Assembly (NCBI GenBank): GCA_035288405.1
Contig: DATEAK010000283.1
Location: 1 to 7,361, forward strand
Length of the DNA stretch: 7,361 nt
Direction of reading: 5' to 3'
Source: JACPSX01 sp035288405 [NCBI: bacterium]
GTDB taxonomy: Bacteria > JACPSX01
The notes under the pieces were generated by a model. The model worked only from the letters and a program-made list of their open reading frames with translations, did no database searches and was not told where the DNA came from. Each line of letters begins with the position of its first letter. Position 1 is the first letter of the stretch. Both the position numbers and the translations under genes were made by a program. Of the stretch, positions 1 to 7,361 are shown piece after piece.

Positions 1-861
1 GATGTTGCGGAAGGTGGCGCCTCGGAAGGAGTAAATGCTCTGGGCGTCGTCTCCCACGACCATGACGTTGTCGTGACTGGAAGCGAGAAGCCGTATGATC
101 GCGGCCTGAACTTTATTGGTGTCCTGATACTCATCCACCAGAATGTAGCGGTATCGCTGCGAGAGTCTTTCCCGCACGTCCTCATGCCGGCCAAGAAGTT
201 CCGTCAGCTTTACCAGGAGGTCATCGTAATCCAACATCGACTTCTCTTGTTTGAAAGAGGCATATTCTGCCTGGAGCCGCACGAGATCGTCGAGATAGTG
301 GGAGAAGTGGGGGTATTCATCGGACAGAATGGATTCCAGGGGTTCTTGCCGGTTTACGGATTTGCTCAGAATATCCGCCAGCGTATTTTTGCGGGGAAAT
401 CTCTTTTCCTTGTCGCTCAGGCCCAGCCGCCCACGCAGGAGCTGGAGGACGTCCTCCGCGTCGCTGCGATCCATGATCGTGAACGTGGGGGAGTAGCCGA
501 GGAGCTGTCCATACTTTCTCAAGATCAGATAAGCGACCGAGTGAAAGGTTCCCCCTTGGACACGATCGCAGCGTCCGTCGAGGAGGGCACTGGCCCGGCG
601 CAGCATCTCCTCCGCCGATTTTCGTGTGAAGGTGAGAAGGAGAATCTGTTCGGGAGGAATCCCTCGGGTCACAAGGTGGGCCACCCGGTAGACGAGGGTG
701 CGGGTCTTCCCCGTTCCGGCTCCGGCCACTACCAGAACCGGTCCCTCCAGAGTCTCCACGGCCTTCAATTGGCTCTCGTTGAGGGCCGTTCCGTAGTCAA
801 TCGTCTGGGAGGCGGGGAGAGAGCCCGCCGCGTCGCGGAGCCGGTAGGTTCTCACGGGCAC
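1..861 (-). CDS. UvrD/PcrA-like superfamily 1A DNA helicase, N-terminal part (3' end outside window)
   Basis: ATP-dependent 3'-5' DNA helicase of the UvrD/Rep/PcrA family, acting on DNA in repair, replication restart or recombination. Only the first 287 codons are in the window; the frame runs open through position 1. Motifs visible in order: Q motif LNESQ (about 28-32), Walker A GAGTGKT (47-53), motif Ia LLTFTRKSAEEM (75-86), motif Ib GTFHS (104-108), Walker B LVDEYQDTN (241-249) and motif III VVGDDAQSIYSFRGA (268-282). Together these cover domain 1A and the 1B insertion. I chose GTG at 861-859, one base past the methyltransferase stop, which suggests translational coupling. A second GTG at 855-853 is an alternative, and no in-frame ATG lies close by. 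About 27 residues precede the Q motif, somewhat more than in typical PcrA. Family assignment is secure, but which paralogue (UvrD, PcrA or Rep) cannot be told without the C-terminus. Confidence 0.93.
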   Translation of the reverse strand, partial: MPVRTYRLRDAAGSLPASQTIDYGTALNESQLKAVETLEGPVLVVAGAGTGKTRTLVYRVAHLVTRGIPPEQILLLTFTRKSAEEMLRRASALLDGRCDRVQGGTFHSVAYLILRKYGQLLGYSPTFTIMDRSDAEDVLQLLRGRLGLSDKEKRFPRKNTLADILSKSVNRQEPLESILSDEYPHFSHYLDDLVRLQAEYASFKQEKSMLDYDDLLVKLTELLGRHEDVRERLSQRYRYILVDEYQDTNKVQAAIIRLLASSHDNVMVVGDDAQSIYSFRGATFRNI

Positions 862-862
862 C

Positions 863-1612
863 TCATGCCGTTTTGTATCCGCCGAAGATGGCCCAGTGGT
901 GATATTTCCAGTAACAGTCCACTTCCATGTAACCCAGTTCTACGAGCCACTTCATCTGGATTCCCATGCCGGCTCGGTAGAGGCTACTTGGCTGCGCCGG
1001 ATAGCCGGATTCCCCAAGATTTTCCCGGGCGAACTCGCGCCAAAGGGTTTCCGCTTCTGCGGACAGCCGCCCTTCCCTGATTTTCTCCTGGACGTGGGCG
1101 TCCCAGCGTTTGAAGTAAAAGCGCTGCAAGTGATCGGAGGGGGAAAGAATCTCGTCCGCAATGATCAGGGCTCCTCCGAGAGCCAGTTTGACGAAGATCT
1201 CAGCGAACAGAGACCGTTTCCGAGTGTGAGGGATGTGGTGAAGCACCAGGGTCGAGATGCCGAGGTGAAGAGGATCGTGAAATGACTCCATGGCCTCGTA
1301 ATCATTCAGGTCCTCTCTGTAATACGTGACCCGCTCTGGAAACGCCGCCAGGCACTCCCGAGCGCAGGTCATGGCCTGCTCTGAATGCGCCACGCAGATT
1401 GCCTTTGAGTTGGGGAATTGCGTGAGAATCGCCGCTGTGAAGGCGCCGCTGCCGGCTCCCAGGTCGAGGAAGGTGAGAGGAAAATCCGGGTCGTACGGGA
1501 TCATCTGCAGCACAATGGCCTGCATCTCGTCAAAGCGGGGAAGGAGGACCGGCAGATCCTGATTGTAATGGGGAGTCAGGAATTCGGGAAGGTTTTCCCT
1601 CAATCTAGCCAT
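863..1612 (-). CDS. Class I SAM-dependent methyltransferase of unknown substrate
   Basis: Predicted soluble methyltransferase of 249 residues. The glycine-rich SAM-binding motif I, FLDLGAGSGAFT, is at about 48-59; a post-I strand AICVAHSEQ is at 71-79, an acidic stretch REDLND at 99-104, and a motif IV-like STLVLHHI at 120-127. The C-terminal part, ending in VDCYWKYHHWAIFGGYK, looks like the lid and final strand of generic methyltransferases that act on small molecules or tRNA. The residue closing strand beta-2, usually Asp or Glu to hold the SAM ribose, appears to be Ala75-His76 here. The ATG at 1612 overlaps the end of dapF by 13 bp, and a GGAG lies just before it, at very tight spacing. 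A TTG at residue 4 is a possible alternative start. The stop is one base before the helicase GTG, so the gene is the middle member of a dapF-methyltransferase-helicase operon. I do not recognise the substrate, and its position says little about it. Confidence 0.85.
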   Translation of the reverse strand: MARLRENLPEFLTPHYNQDLPVLLPRFDEMQAIVLQMIPYDPDFPLTFLDLGAGSGAFTAAILTQFPNSKAICVAHSEQAMTCARECLAAFPERVTYYREDLNDYEAMESFHDPLHLGISTLVLHHIPHTRKRSLFAEIFVKLALGGALIIADEILSPSDHLQRFYFKRWDAHVQEKIREGRLSAEAETLWREFARENLGESGYPAQPSSLYRAGMGIQMKWLVELGYMEVDCYWKYHHWAIFGGYKTA

Positions 1613-2430
1613 TCTCCGCTGAAAACTTCGACGGCGGGGCCGGTCATGTAGACGTGGTTGTTCTCAGCCCACTCCATGTTCAGATCCCCCCCCCGTAAGT
1701 GGATAGTCACCCGGCGCTCCGTCTTGCCGTTGAGAACCCCGGCCACGGCCGTGGCGGAAGCTCCGGTGCCGCAGGCCCAGGTTTCTCCCGAGCCTCTCTC
1801 CCAGGTGCGCTGGGAGACCTCGCTGCGGCTTAAGACCTCCACGAATTCCACGTTGGTCCGGCTGGGGAAAACGGGATAGTTCTCGATCAAGGGGCCGTAA
1901 AAGCCGACCTCGAAGTTCTCGACCTGATCGACGAAAATCACGCAGTGCGGGTTTCCCATGGAGACGGCGGTGACCTTGAACTTTCGACCTCCCGCCTCGA
2001 TTTCTTCGGCGATGACTTGCCCTGCGGGACCCGTCATGGGGATCTCGCCGCGCTGGAGGCGGGGACAGCCCATATCGACGGTGACCGTATCCACCCGACC
2101 GTTACTGGCGTGAAGCGTGATCGGTAAGATGCCGGCCAGTGTGTCGATGCGGATCTCCGCCTTGCTCGTATATTTGCGGTCGTAGACGTATTTGCCCACG
2201 CAGCGGATGCCGTTGCCGCACATTTCGGCCTCACTGCCGTCGGCGTTGAAAATTCGCATGCGGAAATCGGCGCTCTCCGCAGGGAGAATAAGAATGATTC
2301 CGTCTCCGCCGATTCCAAAGTGCCGATCACTCATGGCCCGGGACAGGCTGGCTGGATCCGCGACTTTTTCCTTGAGACAGTCGATAAAAATGTAGTCGTT
2401 GCCGGCCCCGTGCATTTTCGTGAACTTCAT
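1600..2430 (-). CDS. dapF: Diaminopimelate epimerase
   Basis: Cytoplasmic, cofactor-free epimerase that converts LL-diaminopimelate to meso-diaminopimelate, the step before lysine and the source of the peptidoglycan cross-linking residue. The 276-residue protein has the family's usual length and begins with the characteristic MKFTKMHGAGNDY. The two catalytic cysteines are visible: Cys71 in MCGNGIRC and Cys220 in WACGTGASA, each in its conserved glycine-rich setting. Substrate-contact segments FNADGSEAE (61-69), SMGNPH (157-162) and ERGSGET (211-217) are intact. I chose ATG 2430 because it matches the family N-terminus and has AAGGA seven bases upstream. The frame extends further upstream to a TTG, but that would lie in the promoter -35 box. 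The coding strand contains a run of nine G (1694-1686) within codons for Arg-Gly-Gly-Asp. First gene of the operon with the methyltransferase and helicase. Confidence 0.97.
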   Translation of the reverse strand: MKFTKMHGAGNDYIFIDCLKEKVADPASLSRAMSDRHFGIGGDGIILILPAESADFRMRIFNADGSEAEMCGNGIRCVGKYVYDRKYTSKAEIRIDTLAGILPITLHASNGRVDTVTVDMGCPRLQRGEIPMTGPAGQVIAEEIEAGGRKFKVTAVSMGNPHCVIFVDQVENFEVGFYGPLIENYPVFPSRTNVEFVEVLSRSEVSQRTWERGSGETWACGTGASATAVAGVLNGKTERRVTIHLRGGDLNMEWAENNHVYMTGPAVEVFSGEWLD

Positions 2431-2482
2431 TCTTGGATCCTTTGCGGATAGGGAAGACTCTTCTAAGCAAACCGCTGTCCAC

Positions 2483-2510
2483 ATTATATACATCGGGGAA
2501 ATCAAGTCAA
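2483..2510 (-). promoter_or_regulatory. Predicted sigma70-type promoter of the dapF operon
   Basis: Read on the minus strand, TTGACT (2510-2505) is followed after 16 bases by a perfect TATAAT (2488-2483). Transcription would start near 2476, giving a leader of about 46 bases before dapF. The short leader has no evident lysine riboswitch. The -35 box lies 13 bp from the -35 box of the divergent rrf2 promoter. Confidence 0.8.
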
Positions 2511-2523
2511 CGCGCTCCAACCA

Positions 2524-2552
2524 TTGACACAGGGGAACCCGTCCGCTATTAA
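2524..2552 (+). promoter_or_regulatory. Predicted sigma70-type promoter of the Rrf2-family regulator gene
   Basis: A perfect -35 box TTGACA (2524-2529) is followed after 17 bases by TATTAA (2547-2552), a 5-of-6 match to the -10 consensus. Predicted start of transcription is near 2559, leaving a leader of about 37 bases before the ATG at 2596. Confidence 0.8.
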
Positions 2553-2574
2553 TAAGGCAGATCTTGCCAGTATT
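2551..2574. promoter_or_regulatory. Possible operator: interrupted palindrome over the rrf2 transcription start
   Basis: The arms AATA-a-GGCA and TGCC-ag-TATT face each other across five bases (GATCT), giving an almost symmetric dyad apart from one extra base in the right arm. It begins at the end of the -10 box and covers the predicted start site, a classical place for autorepression. I do not recognise it as an IscR, NsrR or CymR consensus site. The GGCA/TGCC arms are short, so chance is a real alternative. Confidence 0.35.
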
Positions 2575-2595
2575 TCCTTTTTACAAGGGGGTAAC

Positions 2596-3039
2596 ATGCA
2601 GTTGACCCGGGGGGGAGAGTACGGGATTCTGGGAGTTTTCTATCTGGCCAAGCAGCCTCCGGGGAAAGTGGTGTTGTTGAGCGAGATTGCCAATTCCCAG
2701 GACATTCCCCAGAGTTTTCTCGCCAAGATTTTTCAGCAGCTCTCCCGGGTGAACATTATTCGCTCTGTGCGTGGTGCCAAGGGGGGGTTCACCCTGGCCC
2801 GTTCTCCGGAAACCATCACGGTGCGGGAGATCCTGGAGGTGATCGAAGGGCCCATGCGGCTAAGTGATTGCCTCGTGGGACCGGATCTTTGTGCGCGTCG
2901 CCCGCACTGCCCTCTGCAGCTGGTCTGGTTGGAGATCCACCGGCAGGTCACCGATATTTTGGAGAAGACCACAATCGCGGGATTGATGGAAATGCAGCGC
3001 CTGGATTTACCGTCTCCGCTTTTCCTCCCCCAGCCTTGA
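2596..3039 (+). CDS. Rrf2-family transcriptional regulator, probable Fe-S cluster sensor
   Basis: DNA-binding regulator of 147 residues in the IscR/NsrR/RirA/CymR family. The N-terminus MQLTRGGEYGILGVFYLA is the typical first helix; the winged helix-turn-helix follows at about 27-66, ending in the wing RSVRGAKGGFTLA (56-68). Three cysteines, Cys92, Cys99 and Cys105, form C-x6-C-x5-C in the region where IscR binds its [2Fe-2S] cluster (C-x5-C-x5-C), so iron-sulfur, redox, nitric oxide or iron sensing is likely. The ATG at 2596 was chosen because it begins the family N-terminus and has AAGGGGG four bases upstream; the longer frame would start at a TTG inside the -35 box. The gene stands alone, divergent from dapF and convergent with the phosphoribosyltransferase gene. 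Its targets are unknown. Autoregulation is plausible from the dyad over its own start site, and effects on dapF are possible because the promoters adjoin. No isc or suf genes are in the window. Confidence 0.92.
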   Translation: MQLTRGGEYGILGVFYLAKQPPGKVVLLSEIANSQDIPQSFLAKIFQQLSRVNIIRSVRGAKGGFTLARSPETITVREILEVIEGPMRLSDCLVGPDLCARRPHCPLQLVWLEIHRQVTDILEKTTIAGLMEMQRLDLPSPLFLPQP

Positions 3040-3075
3040 AGGGCCTCTAACTCACTCCATTTGTTGCGTTACACT

Positions 3076-3090
3076 TGATCCGCCGGATCA
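3076..3090. repeat. Short inverted repeat between convergent genes
   Basis: TGATCC and GGATCA form a 6-bp stem around a GCC loop in the 110-bp gap between the rrf2 stop and the phosphoribosyltransferase stop. It could act as a weak bidirectional transcript end or processing hairpin. No T-tract follows on either strand, so it is not a standard intrinsic terminator. I see no gene in this gap. Confidence 0.4.
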
Positions 3091-3149
3091 CAACTGAACT
3101 CTGCTGATCTCTTCGCTTAGGGACTCACAGGCGTCCGACTCAAGGGATG

Positions 3150-4421
3150 TTATTCCACGGGGGAGAGGCGGCTCAAATTCCCCTTTTTGCGACCGACCTT
3201 GGCGCACGGTTTACCTCCTACCTCCACTACGTCGGCGGTTACATCGATCTTTTTGTGCAGTAAGCTTGAACCGACGCCGTACGAATCGACCGGGACCTGG
3301 AGTTTCTCAAACAGCTCGATCCTGGCGGTGTTAAACCCGCCGGAGGCCATGATCTTGAGCTCGTGAAGCCCGTGGGAGTCAAAAACTTCCCGGGCCTTGT
3401 GCACTAGTTCGGGGCAGACTCCCAGACTGTGCTCGTCGTGGGGGGCGACCGACTTATCCCGCAGGTTTCCGGAAGTATCGAAGCGTACCCCCCAGATCCT
3501 GTGTTTTCCCGGTCCTACCGCCTTGCTCAAATCCCGAGGGGTGCCTCCCCAGTGCTTGTCATAAAAAGCGGTGATCACCTGTAGTGTAGTCCCGATGCAA
3601 TCGTTGTCCCAATCCACCAGGACGACGCGGTTTACACTATCCTCGATTTGCCGGTCAAAGGCCAGGGAGGCTTCGACGGTGGAGCCGCTGTAGGAGGCAA
3701 TCAAGGAGTGGGGAATGGTTCCGATCCCGACGTCTCCCCAGTAATCGGCGTTGGCATCCGTGCTGACCCCGAAGGCTCCCGCCTTCATGGCTGCATACCC
3801 GTCCGTGGCCTGCACCCAGAAGTGATCGAAGCGAGCCGAGAAGAATAGAATCGGCTTCCCACGCGCCGCTTTGACCACCTCTGCGGTGGCGGTGGCCGTT
3901 CCGGTAGGACGGCTGATGACCCCGAGCAGTACGGTTTCCAGGTAAGCGAAGTACTGCTGGGGGCCTTCGATGATCATGAAAGGTTCCCATGGTTCCACCC
4001 GGTCTCCGTCAAACAGAGCCCGCACCCGGATCTGGTTCCAGCAATTGACCCAGAACCGGTTCAGCTGCTGGCGGATGCGGGCTCTCTCCAGGTGAAGGCC
4101 CGCGATGGTCTCCTCCGGCCCCTGGTCCGTGAGACGATAGAGATTGTACTGAACCTCACGGAGCTGCTTGTAGAGACGATCGGCGGCTTCCTTGTCCGAA
4201 TAGCAACCGGTACAGAATTTGAGAATGGCGATGGACTCGTCGATACCAACGATTACTGCCGGCTCCCGAACAAAAAACTGGTACGTCACCCAGGGGTTGT
4301 GATTTTCCTTTTCGAGGATCTCGCTTACTCTGAGAAAGTACTTGTCCGTGTAATAGCCGGCCCGGATTTTGTCGATGGGCACCTTGAATACCCAGGGCTC
4401 CAGTCGTTTATTTTGCTCCAT
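3150..4421 (-). CDS. pncB: Nicotinate phosphoribosyltransferase-like enzyme
   Basis: Probable salvage enzyme that joins nicotinate to phosphoribosyl pyrophosphate to make nicotinate mononucleotide for NAD synthesis. The 423-residue protein opens with VPIDKIRAGYYTDKYFLR (14-31), the family's conserved N-terminal tyrosine/aspartate segment. Further family features are RPTGTATA (171-178), the ARFDHFWVQATDGYAA segment (196-211), GIGTIPHSLIA (232-242) with the histidine expected near the active site, GVRFDTSGNL (311-320), and the phosphate-binding end MASGGFN (358-364) with VDSYGVGSSL (378-387). The fold is type II phosphoribosyltransferase. Quinolinate phosphoribosyltransferase is a related alternative, and database records for this group often mix the two names. 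The ATG at 4421 has a strong AGGAGGG six bases upstream that overlaps the stop codon of the preceding crotonase gene, so the pair is co-transcribed and probably translationally coupled. No obvious metabolic link to the crotonase is visible. The symbol is given by family and is not a proven orthology. Confidence 0.85.
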   Translation of the reverse strand: MEQNKRLEPWVFKVPIDKIRAGYYTDKYFLRVSEILEKENHNPWVTYQFFVREPAVIVGIDESIAILKFCTGCYSDKEAADRLYKQLREVQYNLYRLTDQGPEETIAGLHLERARIRQQLNRFWVNCWNQIRVRALFDGDRVEPWEPFMIIEGPQQYFAYLETVLLGVISRPTGTATATAEVVKAARGKPILFFSARFDHFWVQATDGYAAMKAGAFGVSTDANADYWGDVGIGTIPHSLIASYSGSTVEASLAFDRQIEDSVNRVVLVDWDNDCIGTTLQVITAFYDKHWGGTPRDLSKAVGPGKHRIWGVRFDTSGNLRDKSVAPHDEHSLGVCPELVHKAREVFDSHGLHELKIMASGGFNTARIELFEKLQVPVDSYGVGSSLLHKKIDVTADVVEVGGKPCAKVGRKKGNLSRLSPVE

Positions 4422-4427
4422 GACCTG

Positions 4428-4434
4428 CCCTCCT
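4428..4434 (-). promoter_or_regulatory. Strong ribosome-binding site overlapping the crotonase stop codon
   Basis: AGGAGGG on the minus strand shares its first bases with the TAG stop codon (4435-4433) of the crotonase gene and sits six bases before the phosphoribosyltransferase ATG. This layout favours coupled translation of the two genes and fixes the start of the second. Confidence 0.8.
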
Positions 4435-5233
4435 AACGGGACTGGAATTTGGGGCTTCTCTTCTCCGCAAAGGCACGGATGCCCTCGGCGAAATCCTGGG
4501 TTTGCGTGCTCTGTCCGATAAATTGCCGCTCGAATTCCATCTGTGTCTCCAGACTTTCGTTGAGGGAGGAATTAAGCAGCATTTTCGTGCGCCCCATGGC
4601 CAGAGTTGCTCCGGTTGCCAGGTGCGCGGCGAACTCGAAAGTGGCGCGCTCCAGTTCATCGGCGGGAACCACCCGGTTTACGATCCCCAGATCGAAGGCC
4701 TTGGCTGCGCCGATCATCTCTCCAGTGAAGAAGTATTCCGCCGCCCTCTTCATCCCCAAATGCCGGGTGAGAAAGTAACTGGACCCCCCATCCACGGAGA
4801 GCCCGATCTTTACGTAAGCCTGGTTGAAGTGTGCCATGTCGGAAGCAAAGACCAGATCACAGGCCAGCGCAAGGCTGAATCCGGCCCCGCTGGCCACGCC
4901 ATTGACCGAACCGATGACCGGTTTTTCCAGGCGCCGGATGGCAGAGATCATGCCGTGAAGGTAAAAAACCAGCTCCCGCAAAAATCGCTCTCCTTCTGGA
5001 GCTCCCTTTCGAGCCGACTCCAGCATGAGCTTTACATCGCCACCGGAGCAGAAAGCGCGCCCGGCTCCGGTGAGAGTCACACAGCGGATTGTGCGATCGG
5101 ACTGGCAGACCCGCAAGGCATCTATCATTTCCTGACACATGGGGATGCTGAGAGCATTAAGCTGGTCCGGCCGGTTCAGAGTGATCTGTGCTACACCGTC
5201 TCTTGTTTCCCATAGAATCGTTTCGTATGCCAT
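4433..5233 (-). CDS. Crotonase-fold enoyl-CoA hydratase/isomerase family protein, more likely an isomerase
   Basis: Acyl-CoA-processing enzyme of the crotonase superfamily, 266 residues, cytoplasmic. Visible family features: LNRPDQLNALS (19-29), the oxyanion-hole segment GAGRAFCSGGD (56-66), the second oxyanion segment NGVASGAGFSLALACDL (111-127), the VKIGLSVDGGSSYFLTRHLG block (141-160), and a C-terminal helix ending FAEKRSPKF. Aligned by eye to rat mitochondrial hydratase, the two catalytic glutamates (Glu144 and Glu164) correspond to Ser120 and Tyr140, so a simple hydratase is unlikely. Asp148 in SVDGG is placed like the aspartate of PaaG-type and other enoyl-CoA isomerases. The ATG at 5233 has GGAGG six bases upstream and begins the family N-terminus; the frame extends to a TTG at 5269 that lies in the leader. 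First gene of an operon with the phosphoribosyltransferase. The substrate cannot be read from sequence; fatty-acid, aromatic-acid or other acyl-CoA degradation are all possible. Confidence 0.9.
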   Translation of the reverse strand: MAYETILWETRDGVAQITLNRPDQLNALSIPMCQEMIDALRVCQSDRTIRCVTLTGAGRAFCSGGDVKLMLESARKGAPEGERFLRELVFYLHGMISAIRRLEKPVIGSVNGVASGAGFSLALACDLVFASDMAHFNQAYVKIGLSVDGGSSYFLTRHLGMKRAAEYFFTGEMIGAAKAFDLGIVNRVVPADELERATFEFAAHLATGATLAMGRTKMLLNSSLNESLETQMEFERQFIGQSTQTQDFAEGIRAFAEKRSPKFQSR

Positions 5234-5286
5234 TGAATGCCTCCGCTTCAAGGAAAGGGGAAAGAACAAGAACCGCTTCCCGTACG

Positions 5287-5314
5287 ATTATACGCCGGAG
5301 CGGGCCGGCATCAA
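5287..5314 (-). promoter_or_regulatory. Predicted promoter of the crotonase-phosphoribosyltransferase operon
   Basis: On the minus strand TTGATG (5314-5309, 4 of 6 consensus bases) precedes a perfect TATAAT (5292-5287) by 16 bases. Transcription would start near 5280, about 47 bases before the crotonase ATG. The -35 box lies inside the left arm of the heptad repeat, so the repeat may supply part of the promoter. Confidence 0.65.
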
Positions 5315-5414
5315 GCATGAAGCTGGAAGGCGTTCAGCGGTAAGCGCTCAGCCAGAAATTTGAAAGGAATGTCTGCCGAGAAATTTGGGCATCTAAAGCT
5401 GAGTGCTGACAGCT
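5308..5414. repeat. Degenerate heptad repeat in two opposing arms
   Basis: The gap between the crotonase and IspH-UbiA genes carries GC dinucleotides at a 7-bp period. In the left arm they begin at 5308, 5315, 5322, 5330, 5337, 5344 and 5351, with one 8-bp step; read on the minus strand the units resemble GCTGAAC or GCTTACC. In the right arm they begin at 5398, 5405 and 5412, with plus-strand units like GCTGAGT and GCTGACA. The arms therefore face each other, and 5332-5352 can pair imperfectly with 5398-5418. The spacer holds a 9-bp direct repeat, AGAAATTTG (5354-5362 and 5379-5387). No coding frame or clear terminator is visible here. Confidence 0.6.
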
Positions 5415-5424
5415 ATTTTCGCTC

Positions 5425-7167
5425 TTAGACCAGCACTAAGGCTCCTAGGTAAGCCAGAAGGCCCGCAACGATCAGGTTGCCGTCCACCATGAGGAGAAAT
5501 GTGAGGCCTTTAAAAACCACCTTGCGTTGGTAGAGATAGAGAGTCAGGGCGGAATAGGCCAGAGCTGCCAGCATGGCAAAGGCCAGGGGGGATACCCAGC
5601 CGAGCAGAGCAGAGCCGACGATGATGACGGCCATGGACCCGAGCATGCACCAGAGAAGCCTCAGGGTCGCCGGCTTTTCTATGAGCATGGTCAGAATTTC
5701 GCTTCCTGCAATGCGGTCCCGCTCGATGTCGCTCATGTCCAGCAGGGCCGTGCGCAGAAAAACGACCGTGAAGACGAAAAGACTCGTGACCAGAGTTGCC
5801 GGAAGGGAGCCGGAGTCCGAACTCAGGTAAGGGATGAAGACCATGACCACGGCACAAGCGATCGGAATGAAAAAGCTCTTGGAAGCCAGGATGTCCTTGG
5901 GACGGCGAATCCCAAGCACTTTCTGCCATTGGTACGGAATGAACCTGACGCTGTAGAGAACTCCCGTCAAGCTGAAGACCAGAAGACAGGCAAATGGAAG
6001 AGGTCCCAGCGGGAATGTCAAGGCCAGAGCCGCGATGCCGGCGGCCATACCCGTTCCCAACAGGGGGCGCGCGTGTCGTTCGTAAAACTCCGTACGGGCG
6101 GGTTCGTTGAATTTGTCCGCTTCCTTGTCCAAGCAGCGATTTAGGATGAACATGGAAAGCGTGTAGAGGATGGCGATCAGAGGGTAAACCGGTTTCGGTT
6201 GAATTTCCTGGAGCAACGCGGATCCGAGGGTGAGGAGTGCCGCACCCAGAGCGACAAAGAAACTGAGACGAAAGAGAGAAGTCGTCATTCGCCGCAGGCC
6301 TTGAAGCCAGAGAGGTTCGTGGAGATGTTCCAGAGCATCGATATGATCGATGACCTTCTGAATGAGCCAGTTGGGTGTTGAGGCACCGGCGGTGATGCCG
6401 ACGGTCTCGAACTTTTCCAGTTCGTCCAGACGAATCTCTTTTTCTGTCTCCACGAAGAAGGCGGGGATTCCATAGGATTCGGAAATCTGGGCCAGGCGCC
6501 GGGTGTTGCCGCTGTTCTTGCCGCCGATGATCACCATGGCATCGACCTCCTGGGCCAATTCCCGAACCTCCCTCTGGCGATTCAAGGTCTCGAAGCAGAT
6601 CGTGTTCACCACGTCGCAGACCCCATAGCGTTTTCTAAGCGCCCCGGCAATCTGCAGGAAATATTGCTCATCAAAAGTGGTTTGGGCAACGACGCAGACT
6701 TTCTCGAAATTGGGCAGCTTGTCGACGTCTTCGATTTTACTGATCACGGTTCCCTGCCCGCGGGCAAAGCCCAGGTGACCGATCACCTCGGGGTGCTTTT
6801 CTTCTCCGACGATGATCAGGTGATGCCCTCTCTTCAAGTAGCGCCGGATTGAGGAGTGGACCTTACTGACCAGGGGGCATGTGGCATCGCGAATGGTGAG
6901 ACCTGTGGATTTGAGTTCCTGGCGCACGTCGGGGCCGATTCCATGGGCTCGTACGATGACGGTGCCGTTTGAATTGAGTTCGGAAATCTGGTTGACGACC
7001 CTTACGTCCTTAGAATTCAGGATCTCAACGGCCTGGGGGTTATGGATAATAGGGCCAAAGGTGGTGACGGATCCCTCTTCTTTGCCGGCGGCGTCCAGGA
7101 CGATGTTCATCGCCCTGCGGACCCCCATGCAGTACCCGGACCCTTCCTTTGCGATGACCTTTTTCAC
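5425..7167 (-). CDS. ispH: IspH (LytB) fused to a UbiA-superfamily membrane domain
   Basis: Residues 1 to about 282 are 4-hydroxy-3-methylbut-2-enyl diphosphate reductase, the last enzyme of the MEP pathway, a [4Fe-4S] protein producing IPP and DMAPP. Its cluster cysteines are Cys13 (GYCMGV), Cys97 (DATCPLV) and Cys191 (TICFET). Diphosphate-binding residues are His42, His75 (RAHGIG) and His125, with Glu127 in KHPEVIG; the GKNSGNT (216-222) and GASTPNW (261-267) segments are also present. A linker at about 283-299 leads to roughly nine hydrophobic segments between 300 and 580. These carry N343-xxx-D347-xxx-D351, followed by NEPAR, and a second motif D477-xx-D480-xxx-D484, the pattern of UbiA prenyltransferases that bind Mg-diphosphate. 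Usual IspH is about 280-320 residues. The GTG start at 7167 gives the expected KKVIAKEGSGYCMG beginning and has GAGGGGG nine bases upstream. The frame is uninterrupted. An internal ATG at 6288 before the membrane part has no good ribosome-binding site. The acceptor of the prenyl domain is unknown. Confidence 0.93.
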   Translation of the reverse strand: MKKVIAKEGSGYCMGVRRAMNIVLDAAGKEEGSVTTFGPIIHNPQAVEILNSKDVRVVNQISELNSNGTVIVRAHGIGPDVRQELKSTGLTIRDATCPLVSKVHSSIRRYLKRGHHLIIVGEEKHPEVIGHLGFARGQGTVISKIEDVDKLPNFEKVCVVAQTTFDEQYFLQIAGALRKRYGVCDVVNTICFETLNRQREVRELAQEVDAMVIIGGKNSGNTRRLAQISESYGIPAFFVETEKEIRLDELEKFETVGITAGASTPNWLIQKVIDHIDALEHLHEPLWLQGLRRMTTSLFRLSFFVALGAALLTLGSALLQEIQPKPVYPLIAILYTLSMFILNRCLDKEADKFNEPARTEFYERHARPLLGTGMAAGIAALALTFPLGPLPFACLLVFSLTGVLYSVRFIPYQWQKVLGIRRPKDILASKSFFIPIACAVVMVFIPYLSSDSGSLPATLVTSLFVFTVVFLRTALLDMSDIERDRIAGSEILTMLIEKPATLRLLWCMLGSMAVIIVGSALLGWVSPLAFAMLAALAYSALTLYLYQRKVVFKGLTFLLMVDGNLIVAGLLAYLGALVLV

Positions 7168-7213
7168 CGGAAGTTTCCCCCTCGCAGGCGGAAATGATCG
7201 ACTGTTCCTCTCT

Positions 7214-7242
7214 ACGATAACGGGAGCCCCTATTTATGTCAA
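7214..7242 (-). promoter_or_regulatory. Predicted sigma70-type promoter of the ispH-ubiA fusion gene
   Basis: On the minus strand a perfect TTGACA (7242-7237) is followed after 17 bases by TATCGT (7219-7214), which keeps 4 of 6 consensus bases. Transcription would start near 7207, leaving a leader of about 40 bases. Confidence 0.65.
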
Positions 7243-7361
7243 GTCATTCCTGCCCATGGCGGTTTGGAAGGAGAGACCGGGGTGCTCCTTCGGCAAGTCT
7301 CAGGGCAGGCCTTGGGGCTCCAGTAAACTTTTGCGTGGGAGGGCGGTTTCGGTTCAACTCT
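7243..7361. other. Right-hand edge with no supported gene
   Basis: Two frames are open to the window end. A minus-strand frame of 40 codons, rich in Pro and Ser, ends in a TGA at 7241-7239 inside the ispH -35 box, and could be the tail of an upstream gene. A plus-strand frame starts at ATG 7256. Neither resembles a known protein, and the plus-strand ATG has no ribosome-binding site. I leave the stretch unassigned. Confidence 0.3.

What the first reader, a model, noticed from the sequence alone, without database searches (positions are those of the whole stretch)
5425..7167. IspH fused in one frame to a UbiA-type prenyltransferase domain
Seen: one uninterrupted 580-codon frame with a complete set of IspH cluster and substrate residues (Cys13, Cys97, Cys191, His42, His75, His125, Glu127), followed by about nine hydrophobic segments and both Asp-rich motifs of UbiA (N343/D347/D351 and D477/D480/D484). 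Known: IspH makes IPP and DMAPP, and UbiA enzymes transfer isoprenyl chains from diphosphates to membrane acceptors. IspH fused to ribosomal S1-like domains is familiar in clostridia, but I know of no characterised IspH-UbiA fusion. Inference: the fusion would tether a soluble Fe-S reductase to the membrane and might channel product to a prenyl-transfer reaction. Alternatively, the membrane part may use a longer prenyl diphosphate and the link may only serve co-expression or membrane anchoring. The acceptor is not suggested by any neighbour.
Basis: partly seen in the sequence, partly recalled or inferred. Interest (0 to 1): 0.75.

Follow-up and report, generated by a model that had tools for sequence, protein, structure and literature searches.

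The report
Published IspH-UbiA fusion, new lineage
One gene makes a single protein joining the last enzyme of bacterial isoprenoid-precursor synthesis to a membrane prenyl-transferring domain; this fusion was already described in 2015 in sulfate-reducing bacteria, and here it turns up in a little-known groundwater lineage.

Summary
A 580-codon GTG-started frame on the MINUS strand (7167 to 5425) encodes IspH (Pfam LYTB, residues 4-276, 303.3 bits) followed by UbiA (residues 330-544, 43.6 bits, cut-off 34.2). A relative, 89% identical, has the same ungapped fusion and gene order, with third-position bias across the junction, so this is no frameshift. The fusion is not new: Rao et al. 2015 (PMC4746011) described 47 IspH-UbiA proteins in sulfate-reducing anaerobes, with the same co-localisation idea and the same open question of what the UbiA part prenylates. 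Added here: it occurs in a lineage I infer to be candidate phylum JACPSX01 ('Ca. Dalofiota'), whose genome has dsr genes and also COX1-family oxidase genes. The fusion is its only detected IspH; its only other detected UbiA-family gene is haem o synthase. IspG was not found there either, so absences are weak evidence. Most likely both domains work, acceptor unknown. New member of a known kind.

The parts
5425..7167 (-). IspH-UbiA fusion gene, 580 codons, GTG start, stop TAA
   Evidence: (start and stop codons)
6340..7158 (-). IspH (LytB) domain, residues 4-276; Cys13/97/191 and substrate residues present
   Evidence: Pfam LYTB 303.3 bits; TIGR00216 292.3 bits, cut-off 187.85; PDB 3dnf_A E 1.8e-68; residues
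6268..6339 (-). junction/linker, about residues 277-300, no stop, no indel between the two homologues
5536..6180 (-). UbiA prenyltransferase domain match, residues 330-544 (hydrophobic region runs from about 300 to 580)
   Evidence: Pfam UbiA 43.6 bits, cut-off 34.2; domain alone 42.3 bits; hydropathy
6115..6141 (-). first Asp-rich motif NxxxDxxxD, residues 343-351
   Evidence: identical in L001
5716..5739 (-). second Asp-rich motif DxxDxxxD, residues 477-484
   Evidence: identical in L001
7177..7183 (-). purine-rich GAGGGGG, Shine-Dalgarno-like, 9 bases before the GTG (read by eye)
   Evidence: upstream sequence printed
4433..5269 (-). next gene downstream, enoyl-CoA hydratase family; order conserved in L001; not evidently related to the fusion

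Best explanation
A genuine bifunctional protein of the published IspH-UbiA type. Shown: an IspH domain with its cluster and substrate residues, joined in one conserved, selected frame to a UbiA-family hydrophobic domain with both Asp-rich motifs. Inferred: the N-terminal domain is the cell's working IspH, reducing HMBPP to IPP and DMAPP on a [4Fe-4S] cluster. The membrane domain holds it at the cytoplasmic face and itself transfers a prenyl chain from a diphosphate to an acceptor that is still unknown. The link most likely serves co-localisation and matched expression in the same pathway. Direct hand-over of C5 product is less likely, because separate polyprenyl-diphosphate synthases exist.
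For: Both domains over curated cut-offs. Residues intact. 89% identical full-length relative with conserved gene order. Low dN/dS on both halves and third-position bias through the junction. The fusion is the only IspH match in the relative's genome G001 (1 match of 2 candidates scored) while DXR is present, so the fused IspH is probably the working one. Two polyprenyl synthase matches in G001. The same architecture was reported in 47 sequences by Rao et al. (passages and section 16 of PMC4746011).
Against: No activity of an IspH-UbiA protein is reported in what I read; the authors' expression attempts did not give full-length active protein. IspG, the enzyme before IspH, was not found in G001 (0 matches). 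The UbiA domain reaches no functional NCBIfam model's cut-off: best 23.2 bits against 269. Profile comparison with the G001 haem o synthase was not significant. No solved structure matched the C-terminal part by sequence at E <= 1. My structure models were too poor to test the fold, and the PDB search with the second had no hit at E <= 0.001.
Confidence: 0.6

Rival explanations
1. The UbiA domain is only a membrane anchor and no longer a transferase; the fusion just places IspH at the membrane.
For: The domain is divergent: 43.6 bits to Pfam UbiA and no NCBIfam model over cut-off.
Against: Both Asp motifs are intact in both homologues and the domain is under purifying selection, dN/dS 0.113. 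An anchor would not need to keep them.
Confidence: 0.17
2. The fused UbiA domain is the organism's quinone-ring prenyltransferase.
For: In G001 only 2 of 7 scored candidates were UbiA-family matches: the fusion and haem o synthase. A UbiE/MenG-type methyltransferase is present, 244.9 bits, cut-off 158.35, so a quinone is probably made.
Against: G001 is of unknown completeness and has no detected IspG, so a missing MenA/MqnP may be a gap. No menD over cut-off; the PF02621 hits also match NMT1-type transport domains and the MqnE-like hit is CofH, so no quinone route was identified. The domain lists no MqnP, MenA or UbiA model even at E <= 1. Rao et al. [quoted passage not shown]
Confidence: 0.12
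3. Direct C5 channelling: the UbiA domain uses the DMAPP (or IPP) made by the attached IspH.
For: Physical fusion of a producer of DMAPP to a prenyltransferase; an archaeal UbiA homologue has been solved with DMAPP bound (title of 4tq4).
Against: No acceptor or neighbour points to C5 prenylation; separate polyprenyl synthases exist; the structure model was unusable for judging the geometry of the two sites.
Confidence: 0.09
4. Assembly or frameshift artefact joining two genes.
For: The window comes from a record with no held genome, and no reads can be seen.
Against: A second record, 84% identical in DNA over the gene, has the same ungapped 580-codon frame with third-position bias across the junction; 47 published examples.
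Confidence: 0.01

Closest known systems
IspH-UbiA 'Rosetta stone' fusion proteins (Rao et al. 2015, PMC4746011)
   Same: Same two domains in the same order, two Asp-rich motifs in the UbiA part, conserved IspH cysteines
   Different: Published set is from sulfate-reducing anaerobes, primarily Desulfobacterales; this one is from a lineage related to the genome behind L001, which has dsr genes together with COX1-family oxidase genes
IspH (LytB, TIGR00216)
   Same: Cluster and substrate residues present; over curated cut-off
   Different: Carries a C-terminal hydrophobic domain of about 280 residues
UbiA prenyltransferase family (PF01040)
   Same: Over Pfam cut-off; both Asp-rich motifs; multi-pass hydrophobic
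   Different: Reaches no NCBIfam model's cut-off; fused to IspH
IspH-RPS1 fusions
   Same: IspH with a C-terminal partner domain
   Different: Partner is S1 repeats, not a membrane domain; the window protein matches only the IspH part of NF000907 (residues 3-282, 301.4 bits against a cut-off of 624)

Membership tests
IspH | Curated profile cut-off | tested here: met
   TIGR00216 292.3 bits, cut-off 187.85; PF02401 303.3 bits, cut-off 24.5
IspH | Three cluster cysteines and substrate-binding His/Glu (roles recalled) | tested here: met
   C13, C97, C191, H42, H75, H125, E127, aligned with the solved 3dnf_A sequence
IspH | HMBPP reductase activity | not testable with these tools
   needs enzyme assay or complementation
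UbiA | PF01040 gathering score | tested here: met
   43.6 bits whole protein, 42.3 bits domain alone, 49.2 bits in L001; cut-off 34.2
UbiA | Two Asp-rich motifs | tested here: met
   N343/D347/D351 and D477/D480/D484 in both homologues
UbiA | About nine transmembrane helices with the UbiA fold | tested here: inconclusive
   8 segments by hydropathy; model pLDDT 45.5, pTM 0.35; UbiA structures 4tq3/4tq4 at ranks 3-5 but E >= 1; no PDB sequence match at E <= 1
UbiA | Prenyl transfer to an acceptor | not testable with these tools
   no assay; acceptor unknown
IspH-UbiA fusion of Rao et al. | IspH N-terminal, UbiA C-terminal in one chain | tested here: met
IspH-UbiA fusion of Rao et al. | UbiA part of subclass PT_UbiA_5 | not tested
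   CDD is not among the libraries here; no published fusion sequence was compared
IspH-UbiA fusion of Rao et al. | Host is a sulfate-reducing anaerobe (observed distribution, not a structural feature) | tested here: inconclusive
   G001 has dsrA, dsrB, DsrC, DsrM over cut-off and four COX1-family matches of 218-519 bits (some may be nitric oxide reductases, recalled); direction of Dsr not determined; window's own genome not held
MqnP / MenA / UbiA quinone prenyltransferases and haem o synthase | NCBIfam functional model cut-offs | tested here: not met
   C-terminal domain: 3 models listed at E <= 1, none over cut-off; best PRK12884, 23.2 bits against 269

The most novel reading that the evidence does not exclude
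In this dsr-bearing lineage with COX1-family oxidase genes the fused UbiA domain is the main quinone-ring (or another essential lipid) prenyltransferase, so one polypeptide would supply C5 units and perform the final prenylation, and IspH-UbiA would not be confined to anaerobes.
Probability: 0.1. Interest if true: 0.5.

Novelty: new member of a known kind. Interest (0 to 1): 0.25.

Why it matters
The fusion kind has been in print since 2015, but the substrate of its UbiA domain was left open there. A copy outside the sulfate-reducing groups named in that paper suggests that the arrangement is more widely spread. In the related genome the only other detected UbiA-family gene is haem o synthase, which, if a more complete genome bears it out, makes that lineage a cleaner place to ask what the fused domain does.

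Tried and rejected
Own genome: not held. Wider survey: the one genome-contig scan found a single relative (45 stretches matched a pattern, 1 encoded a relative). It uses exact short peptides from one protein and returned none of the Desulfobacterales fusions of the 2015 paper, so it says nothing about rarity. The phylum search around G001 reached only G001 itself (1 genome); I did not try other ranks. IMG/VR: 4 stretches matched a pattern, none a relative. Plasmids: 84 records matched, none covering 80% or more of the query; in the 40 rows listed the match ends at query residue 303 or earlier, that is in the IspH part or just past it; the other 44 were not seen. PDB by sequence: no match for the C-terminal part at E <= 1.

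Structure: two AlphaFold jobs with 2-sequence alignments gave mean pLDDT 43.7 and 45.5; I do not rely on them. The PDB search with the second had 58 matches at E <= 10 and none at E <= 0.001.

Considered and rejected: the MqnE-like hit as futalosine pathway (it is CofH, 491 bits, cut-off 374.1); the PF02621 hits as MqnA/MqnD (they also match NMT1-type transport domains; this is a judgement, since they do pass the PF02621 cut-off); a mevalonate-pathway reading suggested by missing IspG plus an IPP isomerase gene, because DXR is present at 496.3 bits; mevalonate-pathway genes themselves were not searched for. I recalled that the small gene after dsrB might be DsrD; Pfam listed no DsrD match, so I do not claim it. 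A taxonomy look-up added nothing used here.

Full report
Observation. The stated interval holds a 580-codon open frame, but on the minus strand, 7167 down to 5425, with a GTG start; read on the plus strand from 5425 there are six stops. Pfam finds LYTB (IspH) at residues 4-276, 303.3 bits, and UbiA at 330-544, 43.6 bits with a gathering cut-off of 34.2. TIGR00216 (IspH) scores 292.3 bits with a cut-off of 187.85. The IspH half aligns with the solved IspH 3dnf_A at E 1.8e-68.

Is it one gene? The only relative found, L001 (JACPSX010000207.1, titled 'Candidatus Tectomicrobia bacterium', a groundwater MAG; 1 relative among 45 pattern-matched stretches), is 89% identical over 580 ungapped residues. 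Gene order is kept over window positions 1-7243 (four blastn blocks at 79.8-85.6% identity, colinear in inverted orientation). Nucleotide differences fall 49/28/194 on codon positions 1/2/3, and 4/3/31 in codons 271-330 around the junction. dN/dS is 0.069 for the IspH part and 0.113 for the UbiA part; at the junction dS is near or beyond saturation, so the position bias is the better evidence there.

Known or new? It is in print. Rao et al. [quoted passage not shown] Attempts to express fusions from three named species did not give full-length active protein. I saw the outline, ten passages and section 16. Searches for further work used IspH+UbiA+fusion (12 papers listed), 'IspH-UbiA' (2), 'PT_UbiA_5' (1), LytB+UbiA+fused+prenyltransferase (2) and three of four of UbiA superfamily/sulfate-reducing/prenyltransferase/IspH (3). 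By title none but Rao et al. is about this fusion. One other, PMC12605070, holds 'UbiA' only where it lists Rao et al. in its references (passage); the rest I did not open. The library holds open-licence papers only.

Lineage. L001 belongs to the assembly whose accession prefix, JACPSX01, also names a GTDB phylum near Tectomicrobia (passage of PMC10839748). A 2024 review lists JACPSX01 as 'Candidatus Dalofiota', 1 genome, 2.9 Mb, groundwater (passage of PMC11382960), matching the 2.9 Mb of G001. That G001 is that genome is my inference from accession, size and source. The window is about 80-86% identical in DNA to it and so probably comes from a related species; its own genome is not held.

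What the related genome says. In G001 there is 1 IspH match, the fusion, and 2 UbiA-family matches, the fusion and a gene that is haem o synthase by TIGR01473 (323.7 bits, cut-off 210.3), next to a gene with a weak, partial match to haem A synthase (38.3 bits, cut-off 550). DXR is present (496.3 bits, cut-off 315.7); IspG was not found (0 matches). Two polyprenyl-diphosphate synthase matches are present, one beside an IPP isomerase. A UbiE/MenG-type methyltransferase is present (244.9 bits), but no menD over cut-off. The two PF02621 hits pass that family's cut-off but also match NMT1-type transport domains, and I read them as transport proteins; the MqnE-like hit is CofH. dsrA, dsrB, DsrC and DsrM are present over cut-off, and four COX1-family matches of 218-519 bits, one on the same contig as haem o synthase; some of the four may be nitric oxide reductases, which share that family (recalled). 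So by gene content the fusion is not restricted to the anaerobic setting in which it was reported. Completeness of G001 is not given, and the missing IspG shows that absences there cannot be pressed.

Mechanism. Best supported: a working IspH held at the membrane by a UbiA-type transferase that keeps both Asp motifs under selection. The acceptor is unknown and no neighbour suggests one (neighbours: enoyl-CoA hydratase family, nicotinate phosphoribosyltransferase-like, Rrf2 regulator, DapF, methyltransferase). The C-terminal domain reaches no NCBIfam model's cut-off (best 23.2 bits, cut-off 269) and gave no significant profile match to the G001 haem o synthase. Structure prediction failed, with only two sequences in the alignment; the PDB search with the second model placed UbiA structures at ranks 3-5 without significance. 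A pure anchor role, a quinone role and direct C5 channelling all remain open, in that order of likelihood, as set out in the rival list.

Verdict. Real, correctly read apart from the unstated strand, and already described as a kind; the addition is a member from a lineage outside the groups named in 2015.

Noticed in passing
L018 (G001:C9), about 500-8400, minus strand; L008-L011: The relative's genome carries dsrA, dsrB, DsrC and DsrM together with an NAD(P)-binding protein next to dsrA that looks DsrL-like (that name is recalled), and elsewhere four COX1-family genes; direction of the sulfur pathway not settled.
   Followed up: partly
L038 (G001:C37) 7819-11769: F420 biosynthesis genes CofH, CofG and CofE close together, with one further frame between CofG and CofE.
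   Followed up: partly
L033 (G001:C213) 4872-6604: Type 1 IPP isomerase gene directly beside a polyprenyl-diphosphate synthase gene in a genome with DXR.
   Followed up: partly
L001 1291-2901, minus strand: UbiD-family decarboxylase-like gene (TIGR00148 142.9 bits, below its cut-off of 244.85) about 5 kb from the fusion gene in the relative; too far to call a partner.
   Followed up: no
window 3150-4421, minus strand: Nicotinate phosphoribosyltransferase-like protein with an N-terminal stretch of about 130 residues outside the matched part; all 10 NCBIfam models listed are below cut-off (best 282.4 against 378).
   Followed up: no
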